A DNA stretch of 64,000 nt. Origin: Candidatus Koribacter versatilis Ellin345. GTDB lineage: Bacteria > Acidobacteriota > Terriglobia > Terriglobales > Acidobacteriaceae. The DNA is taken from NCBI RefSeq assembly GCF_000014005.1, contig NC_008009.1, forward strand, positions 4,588,001 to 4,652,000, read 5' to 3'. This document shows, piece by piece, positions 6,076-28,592 of the stretch. A program made the position numbers and the translations under genes. The first letter of the stretch is position 1. The number at the start of each line of letters is the position of its first letter. The notes beneath the pieces are model-generated. The model had not been told where the DNA came from. It worked only from the letters and a program-made list of their open reading frames with translations, and ran no database searches.

Positions 6076-7119
6076 ATGATCACGGACGCCCTACATCAGA
6101 TAGTCGTTCACCGGCGGGACCTTACGCGCGAACAGGCGCGCGAAACCATGGCTGACGTCCTGGGAGGAAAAACCACCGACGCGCAGATCGGGGCGTTGCT
6201 CGTCGGGTTGCAGATGAAGGGCGAGACGGTGGATGAGATTGTCGGCTTCGCGGAGGCGATCCGTGCGGCCGCGACGCCGTTGATCGTGCGCGACTCAGCG
6301 CTCGACGTGAGCGGCACCGAGCGCGATGCGCTGCTCGATACCTGCGGCACCGGGGGCGATGCCAGCGGGACGTTCAACATCTCGACGGCGACGGCATTAG
6401 TTGTGGCGGGTGCGGGCGTGAAGGTGGCGAAACACGGCAACCGTAGTGTGACTTCGAAGTGTGGGTCGGCGGATGTGGTCGAGGCGCTGGGAGTGAACAT
6501 CAACCTTCCGGCAGAACGCATGGCGGAGTGCCTGGAGAAAGTCGGGATCGCGTTCCTGTTTGCGCCGGCGATGCACACGGCGATGAAGTATGTGCAGCCG
6601 GCGCGGCGTGAGTTGAAGATGCGCACGGTGTTCAATCTGCTGGGACCGCTCACGAACCCGGCGAATGCTTCATGCCAGGTTGTAGGTGTGTACACAGGGC
6701 AGCTTGTTGAGAAACTGGCGCAGGCCCTCTTACAGCTTGGGTTGAAGCGCGCGCTGGTGGTACATGGGTGGGATGGACTGGATGAGATCACGATATCCGG
6801 CCCGACGAAAGTTGCGGAAGTACGCGATGGAAAGGTGACATCGTACGAGATTTCGCCCGAACAGTTTGGACTGCAACGCGCGCCGCTGAGTGCGCTCGAG
6901 GGCGGCGATGCGCAGGTCAATGCTGCGATCATTCGCGCGATTCTTGATGGCGAGCGGTCTCCGAAGCGCGATGTTGTGCTGCTGAATGCTGCCGCGGCAC
7001 TGGTGGCGGCGGGTCAGGCAGAGACGATGGGAGCGGCGATTCCCGTTGCGGCGTATGCGATTGATAGTGGGCAGGCGAAAGGGAGGCTGCGGTTGCTGGT
7101 GGAGTTTACGAACCTATAG
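6076..7119 (+). CDS. trpD: Anthranilate phosphoribosyltransferase
   Basis: 347 residues, the normal length. It shows [18 protein letters not shown], the PRPP/magnesium-binding loop of Trp[22 protein letters not shown], which contains the anthranilate/PRPP motif, and the conserved [10 protein letters not shown]. It transfers phosphoribose to anthranilate in the second step of tryptophan synthesis. No other trp gene is adjacent: the neighbours are a divergent cyclase and a GH32 hydrolase, so trpD is detached from a trp operon here. The start at 6076 is set by family alignment. Confidence 0.95.
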
Positions 7120-7134
7120 TTCTTCGCGAGGATA

Positions 7135-7186
7135 GGGGTCCTTCGACTGCGCGTGCTTCGCACGCTTCGCTCAGGATGACAGGGGG
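7135..7186 (+). repeat. Hairpin intergenic element, copy B
   Basis: GGTCCTTCG, a palindrome (GCGTGC TTC GCACGC), then CTCAGGATGACAGGGGG. It is one of six copies in the window that share the arms TCCTTCG and CTCAGGATGACA around a variable stem. It lies in the 212-nt gap between trpD and the GH32 gene, beside copy C. Confidence 0.65.
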
Positions 7187-7201
7187 CGTCGGAGCCCGAA
7201 G

Positions 7202-7245
7202 CAAACAGCAGATCCTTCGTTGCTACGTTCCTCAGGATGACAGGA
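7202..7245 (+). repeat. Hairpin intergenic element, copy C
   Basis: CAAACAGCAGATCCTTCG, a short stem (CGT TGCT ACG), then CTCAGGATGACAGGAT. The same arms occur in the copies at 2261, 7135, 15367, 44788 and 50520. The outer ATCCT/AGGAT segments can also pair. Confidence 0.65.
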
Positions 7246-7331
7246 TAGAGGAGTGGGCGGGACGGGCAGCGGTGTTGGCTTCCGTATGGCGATCTGGCTT
7301 CCGCAATGCAATATTGATAGATTCTTCTCCC

Positions 7332-8795
7332 ATGCGCCACGTTCTCGCTCTGCTTGCGTTGATTGCCGTTGCACTTCCTGCTCTTCCCCAATATGACCAG
7401 CCGTATCGTCCGCAGGTGCATTTCTCGCCGCGCGAGCATTGGACGAACGATCCTAACGGGCTGGTGTTCTTTGACGGCGAATATCACCTCTTCTTCCAGT
7501 ACAACCCGTTCGGCGATGTGTGGGGACACATGAGCTGGGGACACGCCGTGAGCAAAGATTTGCTGCATTGGGAGGAACTGCCCGTCGCGGTTCCGGAGAA
7601 GGACGGCGTGATGATCTTCACCGGCAGCGTCGTCGTGGACCACGAGAACTCGAGCGGGTTCTGCAAGCCGAAGACGGAATGCCTGGTTGCGATTTACACC
7701 GGATATCAAGAACACTTCCCCGGCGGGACGCGGCAGGCCCAGTACGTGGCGTACAGCGTGGACCGCGGGCGGACGTGGACGAACTACGACAAGAACCCCG
7801 TGATTGATTTGAAGATGGCGGATTTCCGCGACCCCAGCGTGTTTTGGGACGAGGAGCGACACCGGTGGGTGATGGCGGTGTCGCTGCCGAAAGAACACGA
7901 TGTGCAGTTCTACAGTTCAACGAACTTGAAACAGTGGGCGTTGCTGAGCGAGTTCGGACAGCTCGGAGATACGGACGGTGATTGGGAGTGTCCCGATCTT
8001 CTGCGAGTACCTTCTGCGCAGGATCCGACGAAGAGCACGTGGGCGTTGAAGGTCGGGCTGAATCCTGGGGCACCGCAGGGCGGATCAGGGGAGCAATACT
8101 TCTTCGGTGCTTTCGACGGCAAGACATTTACCGCATCGCACGAGAAGGGCGCGCATGGCTGGACGAACTACGGCAAAGACGATTACTGCGCCATTAACTT
8201 CAACAACATCGCGAAAGATGAGAAGCCCGTTCTGCTGGGCTGGATGAGTAATTGGGAATACGCTGCAAAGTTGCCGACATCTCCGTGGCGTGGACAAATG
8301 AGTTTGCCGCGTAGGCTCTCGTTCGTGAAGGACGTGGAAGGATTGGGGCTGAAGCAGGAGCCGGTGGTGGAAACACTGCGCGATGGGGCGGCGACGACTC
8401 TCACGTCGGCTCCACGAGAAGCGCCGTTCGAGTTGCAGGTGACGTTCGATCCGAAGGCGGAGCAAATCTTTGGAATGCGGATTTACTCTGACAAAGAACA
8501 CTACGTTGAGATTGGCTTCGACCGAAAGAACCAGCAGCTCTTTATGGACCGCACGAAGTCGAGCGTGACGGTGGCGCAGGAGTTTCCGGGCACGACAGTT
8601 GCACCGCTCACAGAAGGACGTGGGTTCGATCTGCACGTGATTGTGGATCGATCGTCGGTTGAGGCGTTTGCGCAAGATGGCACCATCGCGATGAACAACC
8701 TGGTGTTTCCCACAAAGCCGCAAGTGCGCGTCGAGACATTTGGCAGCAAGCCGACATCGGCACAAGTCTGGAAGCTGAAGTCCATTTGGAAGTAA
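7332..8795 (+). CDS. Secreted glycoside hydrolase family 32 (levanase/invertase type)
   Basis: 487 residues from ATG 7332, chosen because it opens a clear signal peptide (MRHVLALLALIAVALPALPQ); the longer frame would run through intergenic repeats. All three GH32 catalytic elements are present: W-T-N-D40-P-N-G (nucleophile), R166-D167-P (transition-state stabiliser) and E219-C-P (acid/base). The N-terminal five-blade propeller is followed by the usual C-terminal beta-sandwich from about residue 350. It hydrolyses beta-fructosides (levan, inulin or sucrose) outside the cytoplasm. No fructose transporter or kinase is beside it. Confidence 0.93.
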   Translation: MRHVLALLALIAVALPALPQYDQPYRPQVHFSPREHWTNDPNGLVFFDGEYHLFFQYNPFGDVWGHMSWGHAVSKDLLHWEELPVAVPEKDGVMIFTGSVVVDHENSSGFCKPKTECLVAIYTGYQEHFPGGTRQAQYVAYSVDRGRTWTNYDKNPVIDLKMADFRDPSVFWDEERHRWVMAVSLPKEHDVQFYSSTNLKQWALLSEFGQLGDTDGDWECPDLLRVPSAQDPTKSTWALKVGLNPGAPQGGSGEQYFFGAFDGKTFTASHEKGAHGWTNYGKDDYCAINFNNIAKDEKPVLLGWMSNWEYAAKLPTSPWRGQMSLPRRLSFVKDVEGLGLKQEPVVETLRDGAATTLTSAPREAPFELQVTFDPKAEQIFGMRIYSDKEHYVEIGFDRKNQQLFMDRTKSSVTVAQEFPGTTVAPLTEGRGFDLHVIVDRSSVEAFAQDGTIAMNNLVFPTKPQVRVETFGSKPTSAQVWKLKSIWK

Positions 8796-8965: not shown

Positions 8966-11389
8966 ATGCGTTCATTGCTGCAGGATGTGCGGTATGGGTT
9001 CCGCGGGCTTCGGAAGAGTCCCGGATATGCGTTGCTGGCGATTGCTGCGCTGGCGCTGGGAATTGGCGCCAACACTGCGTTGTTCAGCGCAATTTACGGC
9101 ATTCTGCTGAAGCCGCTGCCATATGCGAACGGCAAGCGCCTCGTCCTGTTGCAACAGTCGGCGCGCAGTGCGACCTCGCCGAAGTTAGCGGTGTCGGTGC
9201 AGGAGCTTGAGGACTATCGGAAGCAGGCGCATTCGTTCGATGGCTTGGTCGAGTATCACTCGATGCAGTTCATTCTGCTTGGCCGCGAACCGGACCGCGT
9301 GGAGACCGGGGTCGTCTCGGCGAACTTCTTCGATGTGCTCGGCGTGAAGCCGCTTCTTGGACGGACATTCCGCGCCGGAGAAGACCTGGTGGGCGCGGAG
9401 CCAGTGCTGGTGCTGAGCTACAAGTACTGGCAGGAGCACCATGGCGGCGATCCGAACATCGTGGGCAAATCGTTTCGGATGAACGACAAGTTGCACACTG
9501 TGATTGGTGTGCTTCCGCCGATCCCGCAGTATCCGAGAGAGAATGACGTGTACATGCCGGTGTCGGCGTGTCCGACTCGGATGAGCGCGCACATGCTGGA
9601 GAACCGCGCGATGCGCATGCTGAACGTGTTCGGCATCCTCAAACCAGGCGTGACCCTGGAGCAGGCAAATGCGGAAACCAGCACAATCGCGGCCCGCTTT
9701 ACACAGCAGTACCCGAATGCCTACCGGCTTGACCACTTTGCGGTGCACATTGATTCGCTGCAGACGATGTTGACTACCAGGGCACGGCCGCTGCTGATAA
9801 TGCTGCTGATTACGTCCGCCCTGGTGCTGGTGATTTCTTGCGCAAACGTGGCGAACCTTGCGCTGGCGCGCATGACGCAACGCGAATACGAGATGGCGAT
9901 TCGCAGCTCGCTCGGCGCACCGCGTACGCGGCTGATCCGGCAAGTGCTCACGGAATGTACGCTGCTAGCGATTGCGGGTGGTCTGGTGGGACTTTTGTTT
10001 GCGCAGGTAGGAACTCACCTGCTTTCTATCTTCCTGGCGAGATTCACGACGCGCGCAGCCGAAGTGCAGATCAGTGGAGCGGTCCTGGCGTTCACGATGG
10101 TGGTTAGCATAGCGACGGGCCTGCTGTTCGGCCTGGCGCCGGCGCTGAACAGCACGCGGCGTCTTGCGGGCCAGATGCAGACCGGTGCGCGCAGTTCCAG
10201 CGCCGGGCACATGGGATGGTCTCTCCGTAGCGCGCTGATCGTAGCGCAGGTGTGCATCAGCTATGTACTGCTGGTGATTGCAGGGCTCACTCTGCGCAGC
10301 TTCGACAAGCTGCAGAAGGTCGACGCTGGGTTCAATGCGGAGAACGTGGTTGCGTTCACGCTGCCCGTCAACTTCACGAAATATGCAGAACCAGTCAAGT
10401 TCGCCGAGTTGGAACAACGGGTGAAGCAGCGGATTGAGCAACTGCCGGGTGTAACGTCGGCGGCGTCCATTTCGGGACTGCCATTGGGGAGCACATCCCC
10501 CACGCCGCAGCCGATGATGATTGAGAAACAGGTGAAGGACCCGAACGCGCCTAACGTGGAAGTGGATGCGTCCGCAGTGTCGCCGAATGCGTTCTTTACG
10601 CTCGGTGTGCCGTTTATGGCGGGCCGAGATTTCAACGCCCTGGATACGACCAAGTCGGAGAACGTGACGATCTTCAGCGCCTCAACGGCGAAGCGGTACT
10701 TCGGCAACGAAGATCCGGTTGGGCGGCGCGTTTCCTACGACAACGGGGAGAACTGGTGGCGCATTGTTGGCGTGGTGGGCGACGTTCGCTATTTCGGACT
10801 GGATCGGCCACCAATTGACGAAGTGTACGTTCCCGCGGCACAGATCGGGGGAGCCGGCAGGTTCGTTGTCCGCACAACGATGGACGAGGATGCGGCCCGG
10901 AGCCTGTTTACGAAAGCCGTGCGCGAGCTCGATAACGAACAGCCAGTGACCGACTTCAAGACTTTGCGAGAAGTACGCGACGATTCGCTGACGAACACAC
11001 GAGTGACCTCAATGCTGTTGACCTTGTTTGCAGGGTTGGCTCTGGTGCTCGCAGCAACTGGACTCTTCGGCGTGATTTCGTTCCTGGTGAGCCAGCGAAC
11101 GCGTGAGATCGGCATACGGCTCGCGATGGGTGCGCAGACGTCGTCGGTGCTGGTGATGATGTTGCGGCAGGGCGTGAACCTGGTGGCGATCGGGCTTGGA
11201 CTCGGCGTAATCGCGGCGCTGGCGGCGAGCAACGTGGTGAAGAGCTTGTTGTTTGGTGTCTCGACGCGCGATTGGATTACGTTTGTGGGAGTGGGCGCAG
11301 TGTTGTTTGGAAGTACGTTGCTGGCGAGCTATCTGCCGGCGCGACGTGCCGCGAAAGTGCAGCCGATGGAAGCGCTGCGATGCGAGTAG
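8966..11389 (+). CDS. Duplicated FtsX/MacB-type permease (orphan, ADOP-like)
   Basis: 807 residues. ATG 8966 is chosen because TGAGGA ends 5 nt upstream and it begins with the family start MRSLLQDVRYGFRGL. The layout is duplicated: an N-terminal membrane helix (ALGIGANTALFS), a periplasmic MacB-core domain, an FtsX three-helix block (about 270-400), then a second helix, core domain and FtsX block ending in LPARRAAKVQPMEALRCE. This matches the family known as acidobacterial duplicated orphan permeases, which usually lack an adjacent ATPase, and none is seen here. The family is thought to act in macrolide-type or lipoprotein/peptide efflux, but the substrate is unknown. Confidence 0.9.
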   Translation: MRSLLQDVRYGFRGLRKSPGYALLAIAALALGIGANTALFSAIYGILLKPLPYANGKRLVLLQQSARSATSPKLAVSVQELEDYRKQAHSFDGLVEYHSMQFILLGREPDRVETGVVSANFFDVLGVKPLLGRTFRAGEDLVGAEPVLVLSYKYWQEHHGGDPNIVGKSFRMNDKLHTVIGVLPPIPQYPRENDVYMPVSACPTRMSAHMLENRAMRMLNVFGILKPGVTLEQANAETSTIAARFTQQYPNAYRLDHFAVHIDSLQTMLTTRARPLLIMLLITSALVLVISCANVANLALARMTQREYEMAIRSSLGAPRTRLIRQVLTECTLLAIAGGLVGLLFAQVGTHLLSIFLARFTTRAAEVQISGAVLAFTMVVSIATGLLFGLAPALNSTRRLAGQMQTGARSSSAGHMGWSLRSALIVAQVCISYVLLVIAGLTLRSFDKLQKVDAGFNAENVVAFTLPVNFTKYAEPVKFAELEQRVKQRIEQLPGVTSAASISGLPLGSTSPTPQPMMIEKQVKDPNAPNVEVDASAVSPNAFFTLGVPFMAGRDFNALDTTKSENVTIFSASTAKRYFGNEDPVGRRVSYDNGENWWRIVGVVGDVRYFGLDRPPIDEVYVPAAQIGGAGRFVVRTTMDEDAARSLFTKAVRELDNEQPVTDFKTLREVRDDSLTNTRVTSMLLTLFAGLALVLAATGLFGVISFLVSQRTREIGIRLAMGAQTSSVLVMMLRQGVNLVAIGLGLGVIAALAASNVVKSLLFGVSTRDWITFVGVGAVLFGSTLLASYLPARRAAKVQPMEALRCE

Positions 11390-11405
11390 CTTCGGGCCCA
11401 GACGC

Positions 11406-11436
11406 AAAAATGCCCCGCGAAATGAACTCGCGGGGC
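11406..11436 (-). terminator. Terminator between the permease and the M56 gene
   Basis: A 9-bp stem GCCCCGCGA/TCGCGGGGC (11412-11420 with 11428-11436), followed on the minus strand by ATTTTTGCG. It terminates the M56 gene that ends at 11450. Being convergent, it could also stop plus-strand transcripts, though the plus side has only a poor U-tract. Confidence 0.8.
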
Positions 11437-11449
11437 TTCTCGGAAATCC

Positions 11450-13345
11450 TTACTGGACCGGCTGCGCTTTGCCGTTCCTGAGCGTCTCCTGAATTACGGC
11501 TTTGACCTTTTTGTCGGCGGCCTCCGCGATTTTTCCCTGCTGCTCGCCGAGCTTGCCTTGTTTCTCACCGAGCTTGCCTTGCTGTTCTCCAAGCTTGCCC
11601 TGCTCTTCGCCTAGCTTGCCCTGCTTCTCTCCGATCTTGCCCTGGACTTCGCCGAGACGGCCCTGCAAGTCACCGAGCTTCTCCTGAAGGTCGGCGAGTT
11701 GTTCGGAGGTCATGTCCTTACCTTTTTGCGCCTGCAGCTTGGCGGCGGCTTCGTTGATCGCGGCGATTTCGCGCGTCATGTCTGGAGTAGGAACGCTCGC
11801 TTCTTCCTGCTTCCTGCCGAGTGCCTCTTGCTGCTCTCCGAGGGCTTCCTGCTGTTTGCCGAGTTCTTCCTGCTGGCGGCCGAGTTCTTCCATCGGCGCG
11901 TACAGGGCCTGCAAGTTCGCGATGATCGTGGGATCCGTAACGACGTACGATTTGCCTGCGTGGTGGAACCAAAGGAACTTGCCATTGTTAGCCACGCGGC
12001 GAGCTTTTTCAATTTCTTCGCGGGAGTGGCTCGACGCCCAGTGACCGGAGAAGGTCATGTTGGTCTTCGTGCCGTCGACAATGGCGTAGGATTCGCCGTC
12101 GGAGTAGGAATTGCCGTCGTCCGAGACGCCGTAGGAATAAGTTGTGGAGTTGGCGTCTCGCGTTTCTGTCAGCGTGTTTGTATTGTTGTTCGAGTTTGAG
12201 TTTGAGTTTGAGTTCGAGTTCACGTTGGTGTTGTTGGTGGCTTCAGGAGCCTGCGGCGGTTCGGGAGCTGAGGCGGGCGGAGCGGGCGTTTCCAGTTGTA
12301 CGGCCACCATTGGCGGTGGTGCAGGCGCTTTCTGTGCGGCGCGTGCGGAGGGGACGTGCATAAGAAGGCTGGTGGTAAACACCGCGAAGGTAACTAACAG
12401 GAACGCGATGCGGGCGCGCTTCTGTCCGCGCGAGAACGCGGCACGATAAAGGTCTTCGTTGAGAAGCTGTTCGATACGACGAGTGACATTTCCAGAAGAG
12501 GCCATAGCAACTCCAGTCATAGAACGACGCGGCATCGCCGCGAAATGAAGAACGATTTCTGCGTAGTCGGAACGCGTGCCGGATTCCGCGATGCCAGCCT
12601 GGTCGCTAATCGCTTCGGCAAGAACAGCGAGGTGGCGACGGAGCCACCAGCCCAGCGGGCTGAACCAGAAGATCGCGGCGTAAATGCCAGCCAGCAATTG
12701 CAGATGGAAGTCGAAGTGACGTACGTGAGCGCGCTCGTGTGCGAGTACGGCTCGCAGCCTTTCAGGCGACCATTGGTCGAATTCCGACGGAAGCAGAATG
12801 CCGGAGCCGATGGTCACGGGAGAAAGAACCTCGGCGCTGACGCGGACGGAAGGACTCGCGTTCGAATCTGCCGCAATTGGAGTGGATCGACGCCAAATGC
12901 GCCAAGCCGAGACAAGACCGACCAGCAGGCGGGTCAAAAGAACGCCCGTGATCGCGGCGTAAAGCGCGAAGAACAACGCCGGAGTGGGACGCCAAGCTGG
13001 TACCTCATTGCGAGACTGCAGCGGTTTGGCCGATGGCGGCAGGCTGGCGGTACGCGATCCCAAACCGACAGCGGAGCGAACGTATGTGACCGGCGCCCGG
13101 GCGGGGGCAGTCGCAGGTGCGATGGTTGGCGTTTGCGGTGCAGAGAAGTTTGGCCGCCATTGCAATGGCGCGGGCACCCACGGGGACTGCATAAGCAGCG
13201 GCATGGCGAAGGCCGCAAACAGGACGATGGTCCAGGCGGTGCGCTGGGCAGCGACGTTCTTCACGCGCAGCATCCACAACAGCGCGTAAGTGATGAGGGC
13301 GAGCGCGAGGGCGCGAGCGGCAGCTTCAAGGAGTACCGAAATCAT
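11450..13345 (-). CDS. M56 (BlaR1/MecR1-like) membrane metalloprotease with heptad-repeat tail
   Basis: 631 residues. N-terminal membrane helices (about 10-27, 38-52, 122-145), a cytoplasmic gluzincin motif H203-E-R-A-H207 and downstream E244-A-I-S-D248, then a further helix (about 312-330). Where BlaR1 carries a penicillin-binding sensor, this protein has an Ala/Pro-rich stretch, an (Asn-Ser)n run (about 375-390), a short globular region and two blocks of Leu-Gly-Glu-x-Gln-x-x heptads. In known systems M56 proteases inactivate BlaI-family repressors. Its start overlaps the BlaI stop (ATGA), so the pair is translationally coupled. The signal it senses is unlikely to be a penicilloyl adduct. 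Confidence 0.85.
   Translation of the reverse strand: MISVLLEAAARALALALITYALLWMLRVKNVAAQRTAWTIVLFAAFAMPLLMQSPWVPAPLQWRPNFSAPQTPTIAPATAPARAPVTYVRSAVGLGSRTASLPPSAKPLQSRNEVPAWRPTPALFFALYAAITGVLLTRLLVGLVSAWRIWRRSTPIAADSNASPSVRVSAEVLSPVTIGSGILLPSEFDQWSPERLRAVLAHERAHVRHFDFHLQLLAGIYAAIFWFSPLGWWLRRHLAVLAEAISDQAGIAESGTRSDYAEIVLHFAAMPRRSMTGVAMASSGNVTRRIEQLLNEDLYRAAFSRGQKRARIAFLLVTFAVFTTSLLMHVPSARAAQKAPAPPPMVAVQLETPAPPASAPEPPQAPEATNNTNVNSNSNSNSNSNNNTNTLTETRDANSTTYSYGVSDDGNSYSDGESYAIVDGTKTNMTFSGHWASSHSREEIEKARRVANNGKFLWFHHAGKSYVVTDPTIIANLQALYAPMEELGRQQEELGKQQEALGEQQEALGRKQEEASVPTPDMTREIAAINEAAAKLQAQKGKDMTSEQLADLQEKLGDLQGRLGEVQGKIGEKQGKLGEEQGKLGEQQGKLGEKQGKLGEQQGKIAEAADKKVKAVIQETLRNGKAQPVQ
11525..11690. 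repeat. 21-bp tandem coding repeats (heptads LGExQGK)
   Basis: About seven 21-nt units resembling CCGAGCTTGCCTTGCTTCTC encode Leu-Gly-Glu-Lys/Glu/Gln-Gln-Gly-Lys heptads in the M56 protein C-terminus. A second, shorter block (LGKQQEA type) lies at about 11810-11890. The period fits a coiled coil; unit number may vary between strains. Confidence 0.75.
12191..12220. repeat. Hexanucleotide microsatellite (five units)
   Basis: Five consecutive 6-nt units (CGAGTT/TGAGTT) inside the M56 gene, which encode an Asn-Ser repeat on the minus strand. Slippage would change length without a frameshift. Confidence 0.8.
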
Positions 13346-24611: not shown

Positions 24612-25502
24612 CTACGCCGCTGACTGCACGGCTCTCTTAAATCCCGGCGCGAACACATCCCGAGCAAATTGCTGGAACGTAACTTTGCCGGTGCGTTTTT
24701 GTTCGCCTTTAAGTTGTTGTATTTTGGGATACGCCTCTTCCATTTCAACCAGCAGCGCCGCCATTTCCGGCGACATCCCGACCTGCGTCATTGCGGCCTT
24801 CAACTGATCGCCCGGGATGGTGACCACCCGAATTTGTTTCCCTATGGCCTGTCCTGCGATGCTCCCCCACTCGTCGAGCGAAATCTCCTGCGGGCCCACG
24901 ATATCGATCACGTGATGGCCGTTGATCGGCCTGAGCAGAAACTCAGCGGCAACCTCGGCTATGTCTTGGGTGGCAATGAATGGCGCTTTCACCGATCCCG
25001 GAATCGAAGTGAAGATGCTGTCTTGTCCAATGATCGACGGCAGCGAGAAAAACACGTTCTCCATGAACTCGTTCGGCCGCAGAGAGACGATGTTCTTGCC
25101 GGCAGCGCGGAACTTCTCTTCCGTGTCATGATGTCCAACAATCGGCCCGGTGCCGCTCGGCAGGAATGCTCCTGCACTCGACAGCTGAACCACATGTAGA
25201 TCCGGATGCTTGCGGATAACGCTCGCCGCGGCCTCAGCCATGCGGCGAGCCGTGCCCAATGGATCATGCGAGGTCATATCCGGGGGCGTCAACCAGAACA
25301 GCGCATCGGCTCCATGCACCGCCTGCTCAAGCACTGCCGGATTGCTGTGCTCTCCAGCGATCACCTTTGCGCCACGACTTGCTAGGTCCTTTACTTTCTC
25401 CGGATGTCGCGCTATCAGCGTGACATCAGATTTGCGGTCAAGAAGTATGTTGGCCAGTTTGTTGCCGATGTGGCCGGTAGGAGTGGTAACTACAATCTTC
25501 AT
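24612..25502 (-). CDS. NmrA-like NAD(P)-binding reductase
   Basis: 296 residues from ATG 25502, with GGAG 9 nt upstream. It is an atypical short-chain dehydrogenase with the dinucleotide motif TGHIGNKLA at residues 9-17, an Arg (LIARHPEKV) that would favour NADP, and a C-terminal half as in NmrA/QOR2-type proteins (VQLSSAGAFLPSG, FMENVF, DIAEVAAEFL). Such proteins act as quinone or aldehyde reductases or as NADP redox sensors. It is divergent from the AhpD-like selenoprotein candidate, with a perfect palindrome in between, which fits a shared redox response. Confidence 0.88.
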   Translation of the reverse strand: MKIVVTTPTGHIGNKLANILLDRKSDVTLIARHPEKVKDLASRGAKVIAGEHSNPAVLEQAVHGADALFWLTPPDMTSHDPLGTARRMAEAAASVIRKHPDLHVVQLSSAGAFLPSGTGPIVGHHDTEEKFRAAGKNIVSLRPNEFMENVFFSLPSIIGQDSIFTSIPGSVKAPFIATQDIAEVAAEFLLRPINGHHVIDIVGPQEISLDEWGSIAGQAIGKQIRVVTIPGDQLKAAMTQVGMSPEMAALLVEMEEAYPKIQQLKGEQKRTGKVTFQQFARDVFAPGFKRAVQSAA

Positions 25503-25629
25503 GGGGTTTTTCTCCTTGCTGTCGAGATGTGCGGGCTTTGTCTCGCGCTTCATAAAAAGGCAGCCACTTACACCGTCTACTCGGAACGAAGAACAACAAA
25601 CTTTCCCTGTCACAAAACTCCGTTTGGCA

Positions 25630-25647
25630 TCGTCACTATAGTGACGA
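25630..25647. promoter_or_regulatory. Perfect 18-bp palindrome in the divergent NmrA/AhpD-like intergenic region
   Basis: TCGTCACTATAGTGACGA is fully self-complementary. It lies 32 nt before the AhpD-like ATG and 128 nt before the NmrA-like ATG. The central TATAGT could serve as a -10 for the plus-strand gene, so a bound dimeric regulator would block it. The regulator is unknown; HxlR-, TetR- or MarR-type proteins use sites of this form. Confidence 0.65.
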
Positions 25648-25679: not shown

Positions 25680-26240
25680 ATGACGAGAGTCGAAGGCATT
25701 GATCCGCGGCAGGCTTCGTTCCTGATGCGGCAGGTGTTCAAGAAGGTCCGCAAGATGCTAGGCCGCGATCTCACGCCGCAAAAGATCGCTGCCCGAGTTC
25801 CGCGCGTGTTCTGGGTGAATGTGCTGGGGGAATGGCTGCTTGGACAGAAGGCGACGGTTCCACAGCGGCAGCGCATGCTGCTTACGCTTCGGACGGCGGT
25901 ACGGGTCGGCTGTCCGTTCTGAGTCGACGCCAATTCTGCCGGTGGCAGAATGTATGGGCTGAGCGATGAGGAAATAGAAGCAGCGATCCGCGAGGGCCGA
26001 ATCGAAGGGTTTCCGCCCAGTGAGGTCGCTTTGCTCCGAATGGCAGACGCAATGGCTGACACACCCTCTAATGTGAGCGATGAGCTTTATACAGAATTAA
26101 GGCGGCACTTTTCGGAAGAGCAACTGATCGAACTCGCCGCGAGTGCGGCGCTCGAAAATTTCCGCGCTCGTTATAACCGTGTGTTCGACGTTGGGAGCGA
26201 CGGCTTATATCGCAAGGGAGTGCGATTCAAAGAGGGATAA
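25680..26240 (+). CDS. AhpD/CMD-like selenoprotein candidate (CxxU; UGA at codon 81)
   Basis: 186 residues if the in-frame TGA at 25920-25922 is read as selenocysteine. The start at 25680 follows a strong AGGGGGG ribosome site. Before the TGA: RQRMLLTLRTAVRVG-Cys78-Pro-Phe; after it, in the same frame without other stops: VDANSAGGRMYGLSDEEIEAA... to TAA at 26238. The expected carboxymuconolactone decarboxylase/AhpD motif is Cys-x-x-Cys followed by D-x-N-S-A, so the TGA replaces exactly the second, peroxidatic Cys. A SECIS-like hairpin follows directly. CxxU AhpD-like selenoproteins are known in bacteria. Expected role is peroxide or organic hydroperoxide reduction. Alternatives are a nonsense mutant or sequence error. 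Confidence 0.82.
25920..25951 (+). promoter_or_regulatory. Putative bacterial SECIS element downstream of UGA
   Basis: UGA at 25920-25922 is followed 10 nt later by an uninterrupted 8-bp stem ATTCTGCC/GGCAGAAT (25933-25940 with 25944-25951) closed by GGT (25941-25943). Counting from the U of UGA, the loop occupies nucleotides 22-24, where E. coli fdhF has the SelB-contacting GGU. The bulged U of fdhF is not obvious here. The hairpin lies within the coding sequence, as bacterial SECIS elements do. Confidence 0.75.
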
Positions 26241-26261: not shown

Positions 26262-26336
26262 TGGTAGCGCTACCGGGAATCGAACCCGGGTTTTAAGATT
26301 GAGAATCTCACGTCCTAACCCCTAGACGATAGCGCC
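26262..26336 (-). tRNA. tRNA-Glu (CTC)
   Basis: 75 nt including an encoded CCA (26262-26264). Acceptor GGCGCTA pairs with TAGCGCT (terminal G-U). D-arm GTCTAGGGGTTAGGAC, anticodon loop TTCTCAA within stem TGAGA/TCTTA giving anticodon CTC, and T-arm CCGGG TTCGATT CCCGG. Confidence 0.93.
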
Positions 26337-28516: not shown

Positions 28517-28592
28517 GGTGGGTATAGTTCAGTGGTAGAACTCCGGACTGTGGCTCCGGCTGTCGTGGGTTCGAATCCCACTACCCACCCCA
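28517..28592 (+). tRNA. tRNA-His (GTG)
   Basis: Includes G-1 (28517), acceptor GTGGGTA/TACCCAC, anticodon loop CTGTGGC within stem CCGGA/TCCGG giving GTG, T-arm GTGGG TTCGAAT CCCAC, discriminator C and encoded CCA. G-1 opposite C73 is the His identity element. Confidence 0.95.

What the first reader, a model, noticed from the sequence alone, without database searches (positions are those of the whole stretch)
25680..26240. AhpD/CMD-like gene with in-frame TGA at the second Cys of CxxC: likely selenoprotein (CxxU)
Seen: two ORFs usually called apart (ending at 25922, starting at 25950) are in the same frame, separated only by TGA at 25920. Joined, they give a full-length carboxymuconolactone decarboxylase/AhpD-like protein with Cys78-Pro-Phe-[UGA81]-Val-Asp-Ala-Asn-Ser-Ala. 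In this family the residue at codon 81 is the peroxidatic Cys. Known: CxxU AhpD-like selenoproteins have been described in bacteria. Inferred: this is a misannotated selenoprotein acting in peroxide defence, divergent from an NmrA-like reductase. A random nonsense mutation would have to fall on this exact codon and be followed by a SECIS-like hairpin with no decay of the downstream frame.
Basis: partly seen in the sequence, partly recalled or inferred. Interest (0 to 1): 0.93.

Follow-up and report, generated by a model that had tools for sequence, protein, structure and literature searches.

The report
Selenocysteine-containing AhpD-like redox enzyme gene
A soil acidobacterium gene that looks broken by a stop codon is almost certainly read straight through with selenocysteine in its active site, and its promoter suggests that it belongs to a sigma-factor circuit (ECF41) that I did not find linked to selenium in the papers searched.

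Summary
Window 25680-26240(+) is a 186-codon AhpD/CMD gene with in-frame TGA at 25920-25922, at the second position of a CxxC motif. Every sequence test I could run supports a selenoprotein gene. The genome has tRNA-Sec, SelA, SelB and a SelD with its own in-frame TGA. The codon is TGA in 24 of 37 aligned genes from the phylum (window gene included) and in 69 of 80 named loci; nearly all others are Cys, none TAA or TAG. An 8-bp hairpin with a GGU loop follows 18 nt after the TGA; it covaries, and U-genes keep rare Ser/Arg codons for it. Selection is purifying on both sides.

AhpD-like CxxU selenoproteins (COG2128) have been known since 2005, so this is a new member of a known kind.

Two more such sites lie between an ECF41-like sigma gene and a Cys-CMD gene elsewhere in the genome. 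In two relatives promoter, U-gene and sigma gene lie together. My searches found no paper joining ECF41 with selenoproteins. Peroxide defence remains inference.

The parts
25680..26240 (+). AhpD/CMD-like selenoprotein gene, 186 codons plus TAA, read through an in-frame TGA
   Evidence: homologues
25911..25913 (+). Cys78 codon, first residue of the CxxU motif
   Evidence: invariant in alignments A2 (12 rows) and A6 (67 rows)
25920..25922 (+). TGA codon 81, read as selenocysteine
   Evidence: mostly TGA or Cys at this codon in homologues
25933..25951 (+). SECIS-like hairpin: 8-bp stem, GGU apical loop at 25941-25943, 18 nt after the TGA
   Evidence: covariation; similar layout in the genome's own selD
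25608..25634 (+). ECF41-type promoter TGTCACA-N16-CGTC, 45 nt before the start codon
   Evidence: exact match, 0.07 expected per window; genome sites; conserved in L062 and L181; consensus from PMC3426412
25631..25646 (.). perfect 16-bp palindrome overlapping the -10 element; only outer arms CGTCA/TGACG conserved in relatives; role unknown
24612..25502 (-). divergent NmrA-like (PF05368) gene, a domain counted among the 'E' of ECF41 COE genes; no ECF41 site of its own found
   Evidence: definition in PMC3426412 section 20; promoter scan of both strands

Best explanation
The gene encodes a selenocysteine-containing AhpD/CMD-family thiol oxidoreductase. SelB with Sec-tRNA reads UGA 25920 as selenocysteine, guided by the hairpin at 25933-25951, giving a 186-residue enzyme with a Cys78-Pro-Phe-Sec81 active site. 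Transcription most likely starts from the ECF41-type promoter at 25608-25634, driven by the genome's one full-length ECF41-like sigma factor, which lies about 460 kb away, divergent from a Cys-type CMD gene, with two sites of the same type between them. The enzyme most likely cycles Sec81/Cys78 through a selenenylsulfide to reduce a peroxide, disulfide or other electrophile. SHOWN by sequence: the reading frame, machinery, codon conservation, hairpin selection and promoter match. INFERRED: Sec insertion in the cell (about 0.97), ECF41 control (about 0.75), a redox role (about 0.85), peroxide specifically (about 0.4).
For: tRNA-Sec with TCA anticodon; SelB 360.8 bits and SelA 560.5 bits, both over cut-off; SelD 363.2 bits with one in-frame TGA and an 8-bp GGT-loop hairpin 20 nt after it. 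At codon 81: 24 TGA (window gene included), 11 Cys, 1 Ser, 1 Glu of 37; 69 TGA, 10 Cys, 1 Ser (TCG) of 80; 26 of 26 loci of the order set that reach the codon are TGA, 10 of them repeats of the named set; no TAA or TAG in any of these. SelA in 21 of 22 genomes with a U-gene against 6 of 10 with only Cys forms (Fisher p 0.024). Helix covariation in 80 U-loci: 82.7% of cells paired, score 0.309 against a shuffled mean of 0.112, 0 of 500 shuffles. In U-genes Arg at +9 is AGR in 45 of 48 against 156 of 1472 elsewhere in the same genes; Ser at +5 is TCT in 45 of 50 against 52 of 906. Against the 85% relative L062, dN 0.087/0.095 and dS 0.94/2.25 before/after the TGA. Fold: pLDDT 94.8; Z 22.3, rmsd 2.1, 181 aligned to AhpD-core protein 2prr_J. 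ECF41: exact promoter, sigma factor, promoter plus U-gene plus sigma gene in L062 and L181 and in L113.
Against: No experiment. His-to-Asn at +4 means the AhpD proton relay cannot be assumed. Seven of 24 U-genes do not beat synonymous recoding at p<0.05 (codon weights came from five window ORFs for all species). In one search two coarser measures do not separate: pairs with a double change were reached by 106 of 500 shuffles, and the +1 slide gave more such pairs and pair types. One U-genome (G104, 91% complete, 750 contigs) showed no SelA. For ECF41: the own sigma lacks the WLPEP motif of the group and is under the TIGR02957 cut-off (208.1 against 323.25 bits; that TIGR02957 stands for ECF41 is recalled). 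Neither promoter nor sigma gene was found beside near-orthologues in G522 and G496. Only 6 of 117 homologues have the promoter within one mismatch in 300 nt.
Confidence: 0.88

Rival explanations
1. A recently broken gene (nonsense mutation, pseudogene) or a sequencing error at one base.
For: Mechanical ORF calling splits the gene into two ORFs; a genome of the same genus (G735, 93% complete) had no match at E 1e-25.
Against: The TGA is at the same codon in separate genomes at 75-85% identity and far beyond; strong purifying selection after the TGA; complete Sec machinery; the hairpin's codons are favoured in U-genes and not in Cys genes.
Confidence: 0.01
2. UGA is read through by another route (near-cognate Trp or Cys insertion), or two separate polypeptides are made by restart at 25950.
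For: ATG at 25950 could start a second ORF.
Against: The non-TGA homologues have Cys in 21 of 24 cases and never Trp at the codon; splitting would cut the CMD domain (54-123) in two; the hairpin layout resembles that of the genome's selD.
Confidence: 0.02
3. The gene is a selenoprotein, but the promoter match is accidental and another regulator controls it (for example one binding the palindrome 25631-25646).
For: Most of the 117 homologues lack the motif; the palindrome is perfect and its 14-base core is unique in the genome at up to one mismatch; the own sigma lacks WLPEP.
Against: Chance expectation 0.07 per 64 kb; motif kept in L062 and L181 although the upstream DNA has diverged; in L062, L181, L113 and L091 a sigma gene of this type directly follows; 5 exact hits upstream of 117 homologues against 0 in the reversed, reverse-complement and three shuffled sets.
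Confidence: 0.2
4. The enzyme's real substrate is not a peroxide but a disulfide or a halogenated/other electrophile (Bmp8-type chemistry).
For: Bmp8 debrominase is among the best sequence and structure matches; Asn at +4 in place of the usual His; no peroxide phenotype for ECF41/CMD mutants in two other bacteria (PMC3426412 section 26).
Against: Equally close matches are AhpD or 'peroxidase-related' proteins, though I did not check what substrates were measured for them.
Confidence: 0.4

Closest known systems
AhpD-like selenoproteins (COG2128, CxxU) of the Sargasso Sea and later surveys (PMC1088965, PMC1794560, PMC2398784, PMC9312934, PMC13188914; passages read)
   Same: CMD/AhpD family, CxxU motif, bacterial SECIS hairpin after the UGA, Cys homologues widespread
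   Different: This gene scores below the curated TIGR01926 cut-off (34.6 against 81.8 bits) and belongs to a CxFUxDxN-type branch
NCBIfam NF053654 'YciW-related (seleno)protein'
   Same: All 12 members of alignment A2 match it at E 0.001 or better, best E 2.2e-97; the window protein matches over its whole length
   Different: Window protein scores 95.1 bits against a cut-off of 310, so it is kin, not a member of that equivalog
ECF41 sigma factor / COE target systems (Wecke et al. 2012, PMC3426412; sections 20 and 26 and passages read)
   Same: Promoter TGTCACA-N16-CGTC, CMD target gene, NmrA-domain neighbour, sigma gene adjacent in relatives
   Different: That survey states that all ECF41-linked CMDs hold CxxC; here the target holds CxxU. 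The sigma gene is unlinked in this genome and lacks WLPEP
Debrominase Bmp8 (PDB 6ohi/6ohj)
   Same: Same fold and CxxC position
   Different: Cys instead of Sec; about 20% identity

Membership tests
Bacterial selenoprotein gene | In-frame UGA at a site that is Cys in homologues | tested here: met
Bacterial selenoprotein gene | SECIS stem-loop directly after the UGA with G in a small apical loop | tested here: met
   8-bp stem, GGU loop, covariation; description of the feature in PMC1088965 passages
Bacterial selenoprotein gene | tRNA-Sec, SelA, SelB, SelD in the genome | tested here: met
Bacterial selenoprotein gene | Frame after the UGA conserved as protein | tested here: met
Bacterial selenoprotein gene | Selenium in the product | not testable with these tools
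   needs 75Se or mass spectrometry
CMD/AhpD-like family (PF02627) | Pfam CMD over gathering score and AhpD-type fold | tested here: met
   43.8 against 23 bits; Z 22.3 to 2prr_J, rmsd 2.1, 181 aligned
Peroxidase-related subfamily TIGR01926 | Score over the curated cut-off | tested here: not met
   34.6 against 81.8 bits
Canonical AhpD active site | His four residues after the second Cys (recalled motif CxxCxxxH) | tested here: not met
   Asn85 here; among U-genes N 45, G 28, H 16, other 4 of 93
NF053654 YciW-related (seleno)protein | Score over the equivalog cut-off | tested here: not met
   95.1 against 310 bits
ECF41 COE target gene | TGTCACA-16+/-1-CGTC promoter upstream | tested here: met
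ECF41 COE target gene | Sigma gene adjacent (in about 60% of known ECF41 genes, table) | tested here: not met
   about 460 kb away in this genome; adjacent in L062, L181, L113
ECF41 COE target gene | Expression depends on the sigma factor | not testable with these tools
   needs transcript mapping with and without the sigma gene
ECF41 sigma (own genome protein) | Regions 2 and 4 plus about 100-aa C-terminal extension | tested here: met
   Pfam regions at 11-74 and 111-161 of 295 aa; alignment
ECF41 sigma (own genome protein) | WLPEP motif in the linker | tested here: not met
   absent in own, L062, L181 and L110; present in L091, L113, L079 (motif)

The most novel reading that the evidence does not exclude
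A branch of the ECF41 sigma-factor system uses a selenoprotein as its output. In this genome one ECF41-like sigma would switch on both a Cys-type CMD beside it and a Sec-type CMD 460 kb away, a trio that sits together in relatives. Because such genes are split by mechanical ORF calling, surveys of ECF41 targets may have missed them.
Probability: 0.65. Interest if true: 0.55.

Novelty: new member of a known kind. Interest (0 to 1): 0.45.

Why it matters
It corrects a gene that mechanical ORF calling splits, and adds a selenium-dependent enzyme to the inventory of acidobacteria. The promoter link gives an entry to an open question: ECF41 factors are widespread, but the one study read found no phenotype for them. 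A target whose product is made only when selenium is available can be tested directly. The set also shows repeated Sec/Cys exchange at one active site (at least 9 changes over the 114 U or Cys rows of a quick tree).

Tried and rejected
Pseudogene and sequencing error: rejected on relatives and selection. Hairpin energy as evidence: z -1.04 in 66 nt, so I relied on synonymous recoding, covariation and codon choice. NmrA neighbour as a conserved partner: no tblastn hit of the window's NmrA protein at E 1e-8 in the other loci, nor at E 1e-4 in the six. Other NmrA/epimerase-domain genes do occur near the sigma genes of L062 and L079, so the 'E' of COE is present in kind; I took this no further. 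Palindrome 25631-25646 as a conserved operator: only the outer arms are kept; left open. ECF41 as a general feature of the family: no; 6 of 117 upstream regions within one mismatch (one of these, L036, lies 181 nt off and is likely chance), and 6 of 33 genomes with a sigma hit at E 1e-35. Two other exact ECF41 sites in the genome: one inside a coding gene, one 24 nt before a membrane-protein-like gene; not pursued. Plasmid search: no match. Paper searches: selenocysteine+Koribacter 0 papers; ECF41+selenoprotein 0; ECF sigma factor+selenocysteine+carboxymuconolactone 0; selenoprotein+sigma factor+AhpD 2 listed, neither titled on this link; Bmp8+debrominase+carboxymuconolactone 0.

Rows dropped or biased: of 38 rows one fragment (G215:C100, residues 112-174 only) was left out, giving 37, window gene included. 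L050 and L052 repeat L019 and L023. In the SelA comparison genomes with both forms count as U, and G275 (Glu at the codon, SelA present) was left out. One search kept 80 of 374 relatives, chosen by similarity to a query alignment of U-proteins, so its TGA share is biased upward. A5 holds 80 of 93 U-loci; of the other 13, eleven with the loop at 20 nt are in A4 and L022 and L048 are in neither. In A4 one row begins a codon late, and the count of pair types there is no higher than in shuffles (363 of 500). In one search nine rows had no locus and were not aligned by me (the tool reports 1 TGA in each); of 27 new loci one (L171) ends at a contig edge before codon 81, and 10 repeat loci of the named set. 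L153 is the L062 site and is counted as one with it. Three of 117 tree rows (Ser, Ser, Glu) were not counted for changes, and four long rows were cut to 215 residues.

Full report
WHAT IS THERE. The window is G000:C1:4588001-4652000 of a single-contig 5,650,368-base genome. The size suggests Candidatus Koribacter versatilis Ellin345 (recalled, not tested). The gene runs 25680-26240(+), 186 codons, with one in-frame TGA at 25920-25922; as one residue it gives CPFU81VDANSA. Pfam CMD matches over its cut-off. The best NCBIfam hit is NF053654 'YciW-related (seleno)protein', over the whole length but below that family's cut-off.

SELENOCYSTEINE MACHINERY. tRNA-Sec has a TCA anticodon (66.4 bits to RF01852). 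SelB, SelA and SelD are each over their curated cut-off. The selD match contains one TGA, followed 20 nt later by an 8-bp hairpin with a GGT loop (sequence), much the layout of the window gene (18 nt, GGU loop).

HOMOLOGUES. In 396 genomes of the phylum, 33 had a match at E 1e-10. Of 38 rows I aligned 37, the window gene among them: codon 81 is TGA in 24, Cys in 11, Ser in 1, Glu in 1 (the Glu row L041 is a long, doubtful branch). In named genome contigs 69 of 80 loci have TGA, 10 Cys, 1 TCG, with TGA copies in Acidobacteriota, Myxococcota, Rokuibacteriota, Chloroflexota, Actinomycetota and others. In 397 genomes of the order 37 had a match at E 1e-25; of 27 loci fetched anew, 26 reach codon 81 and all 26 are TGA, 10 loci being repeats of the named set. 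No TAA or TAG was seen at the codon in these sets. SelA was found in 21 of the 22 genomes with a U-gene (own included) and in 6 of the 10 with only a Cys form (Fisher p 0.024).

HAIRPIN. In 80 U-loci aligned without gaps the 7-pair helix is 82.7% paired, with 60 cells changed on both sides (shuffled mean 19.1; 0 of 500) and a covariation score of 0.309, against a shuffled mean of 0.112 and 0.076-0.187 for slid versions. Two coarser measures in that call do not separate: the number of pairs with a double change (106 of 500 shuffles reach it; +1 to +3 slides exceed it) and, against the +1 slide, the number of pair types. A second branch, with the loop at 20 nt, is 100% paired with 13 doubly changed cells. 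Synonymous recoding reaches the observed stem in fewer than 5% of trials for 17 of 24 U-genes and for 0 of 13 non-TGA genes (one codon table, from five window ORFs, served all). Codon choice is the clearest sign: Arg at +9 is AGA/AGG in 45 of 48 U-genes against 156 of 1472 Arg codons elsewhere in those genes; Ser at +5 is TCT in 45 of 50 against 52 of 906; in Cys genes AGA is 3 of 11 and TCT 1 of 8. Related genes are not independent draws, so the p-values there (1e-37 and smaller) overstate the case.

SELECTION. Against the 85% relative L062, dN is 0.087 before and 0.095 after the TGA, dS 0.94 and 2.25. Against L019 dN is 0.131 and 0.132; dS after the TGA could not be computed.

STRUCTURE. AlphaFold2 on 67 aligned sequences gives pLDDT 94.8, with Cys in place of Sec. 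Best solved matches are AhpD-core and peroxidase-related proteins (2prr_J Z 22.3, rmsd 2.1, 181 aligned; 6k40_B 22.1, 2.1, 180; 6e8l_A 21.2, 2.1, 175) and debrominase Bmp8 (6ohi_B 20.1, 2.9, 180). Residue +4 from Sec is Asn here; among 93 U-genes it is N 45, G 28, H 16, other 4. The His of canonical AhpD (recalled) is thus usually absent among them, and the chemistry should be measured, not assumed.

PROMOTER AND SIGMA FACTOR. An exact TGTCACA-N16-CGTC lies at 25608-25634, 45 nt before the start codon; 0.07 expected per window. This is the consensus that Wecke et al. 2012 give for ECF41 targets, which they define as CMDs, oxidoreductases or epimerases, the last including NmrA domains (PMC3426412, passages and section 20). 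The genome has five exact sites (reversed control 2): two face each other between an ECF41-like sigma gene and a Cys-type CMD gene, one is in the window, one lies 24 nt before a membrane-protein-like gene and one inside a coding gene. In L062 the order is Cys-CMD (divergent), promoter, U-gene, sigma gene (57-60% identical to the own one); another genome, L181, has the same order. In L113 a U-gene, and in L091 a Cys gene, has the promoter and is followed by a sigma gene with the WLPEP motif. L050 keeps only the part matching residues 127-293 of the sigma factor, upstream of its U-gene. L062 also has an NmrA-family gene beyond its sigma gene, and L079 an epimerase/NmrA-domain gene between sigma and CMD. 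Against: near-orthologues in G522 and G496 show neither promoter nor sigma gene in the stretches fetched, G674 has only a two-mismatch site and no sigma gene there, and the own sigma lacks WLPEP. So the wiring is lineage-specific and inferred.

FUNCTION. A Sec/Cys redox pair is the firm part of the inference. Peroxide reduction is one candidate; disulfide or dehalogenation-type reduction are others. ECF41 and CMD deletions in two other bacteria gave no peroxide phenotype (PMC3426412 section 26).

NOVELTY. AhpD-like CxxU selenoproteins (COG2128) were described in 2005 with 27 sequences (PMC1088965, passages) and again later (PMC13188914, PMC2398784, PMC9312934, passages). A 2006 survey counted 4 selenoproteins of 3 families in Acidobacteria without naming them in the passages seen (PMC1794560), so this very gene may already have been counted. 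Hence a new member of a known kind. The ECF41 link was not found in the held library, which lacks most subscription papers.

Noticed in passing
L048:5859-6380(-), G000:C1:2217876-2218340: A second CxxU AhpD-like gene in the same genome (CEYULNS), with a shorter hairpin (5 bp) and His at +4.
   Followed up: partly
L015:1501-2430, G000:C1:102988-103917: The genome's selD has an in-frame TGA (AAGUASK) followed by an 8-bp hairpin with a GGT loop: SelD is probably itself a selenoprotein.
   Followed up: partly
window 25631-25646: Perfect 16-bp palindrome CGTCACTATAGTGACG overlapping the -10 element; its 14-base core is unique in the genome at up to one mismatch.
   Followed up: partly
L146, G000:C1:5436329-5436355(-): Exact ECF41 site 24 nt before a small membrane-protein-like gene; possible further target.
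   Followed up: no
L049 about 6966-8200 and 9456-12896(-): A CRISPR-like repeat array and a Cas9-type protein (RuvC_III, HNH_4 and Cas9_a domains) just beyond the U-gene in G073.
   Followed up: partly
L119, codon 81: A Rokuibacteriota copy has TCG (Ser) at the Sec codon, next to a TGA copy on the tree; loss of Sec or an assembly error.
   Followed up: no
L052, G215:C100:7536-7724: Isolated 62-residue stretch 87% identical to residues 113-174 of the window protein, without the rest.
   Followed up: no
L035, L037, L040: Three Cys homologues have lost the first Cys (TPYC/TPCC); no SelA was found in their genomes.
   Followed up: partly
window 26262-26336 and 28518-28592: tRNA-Glu (CTC) directly after the gene on the - strand, and tRNA-His (GTG) on the + strand.
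   Followed up: no
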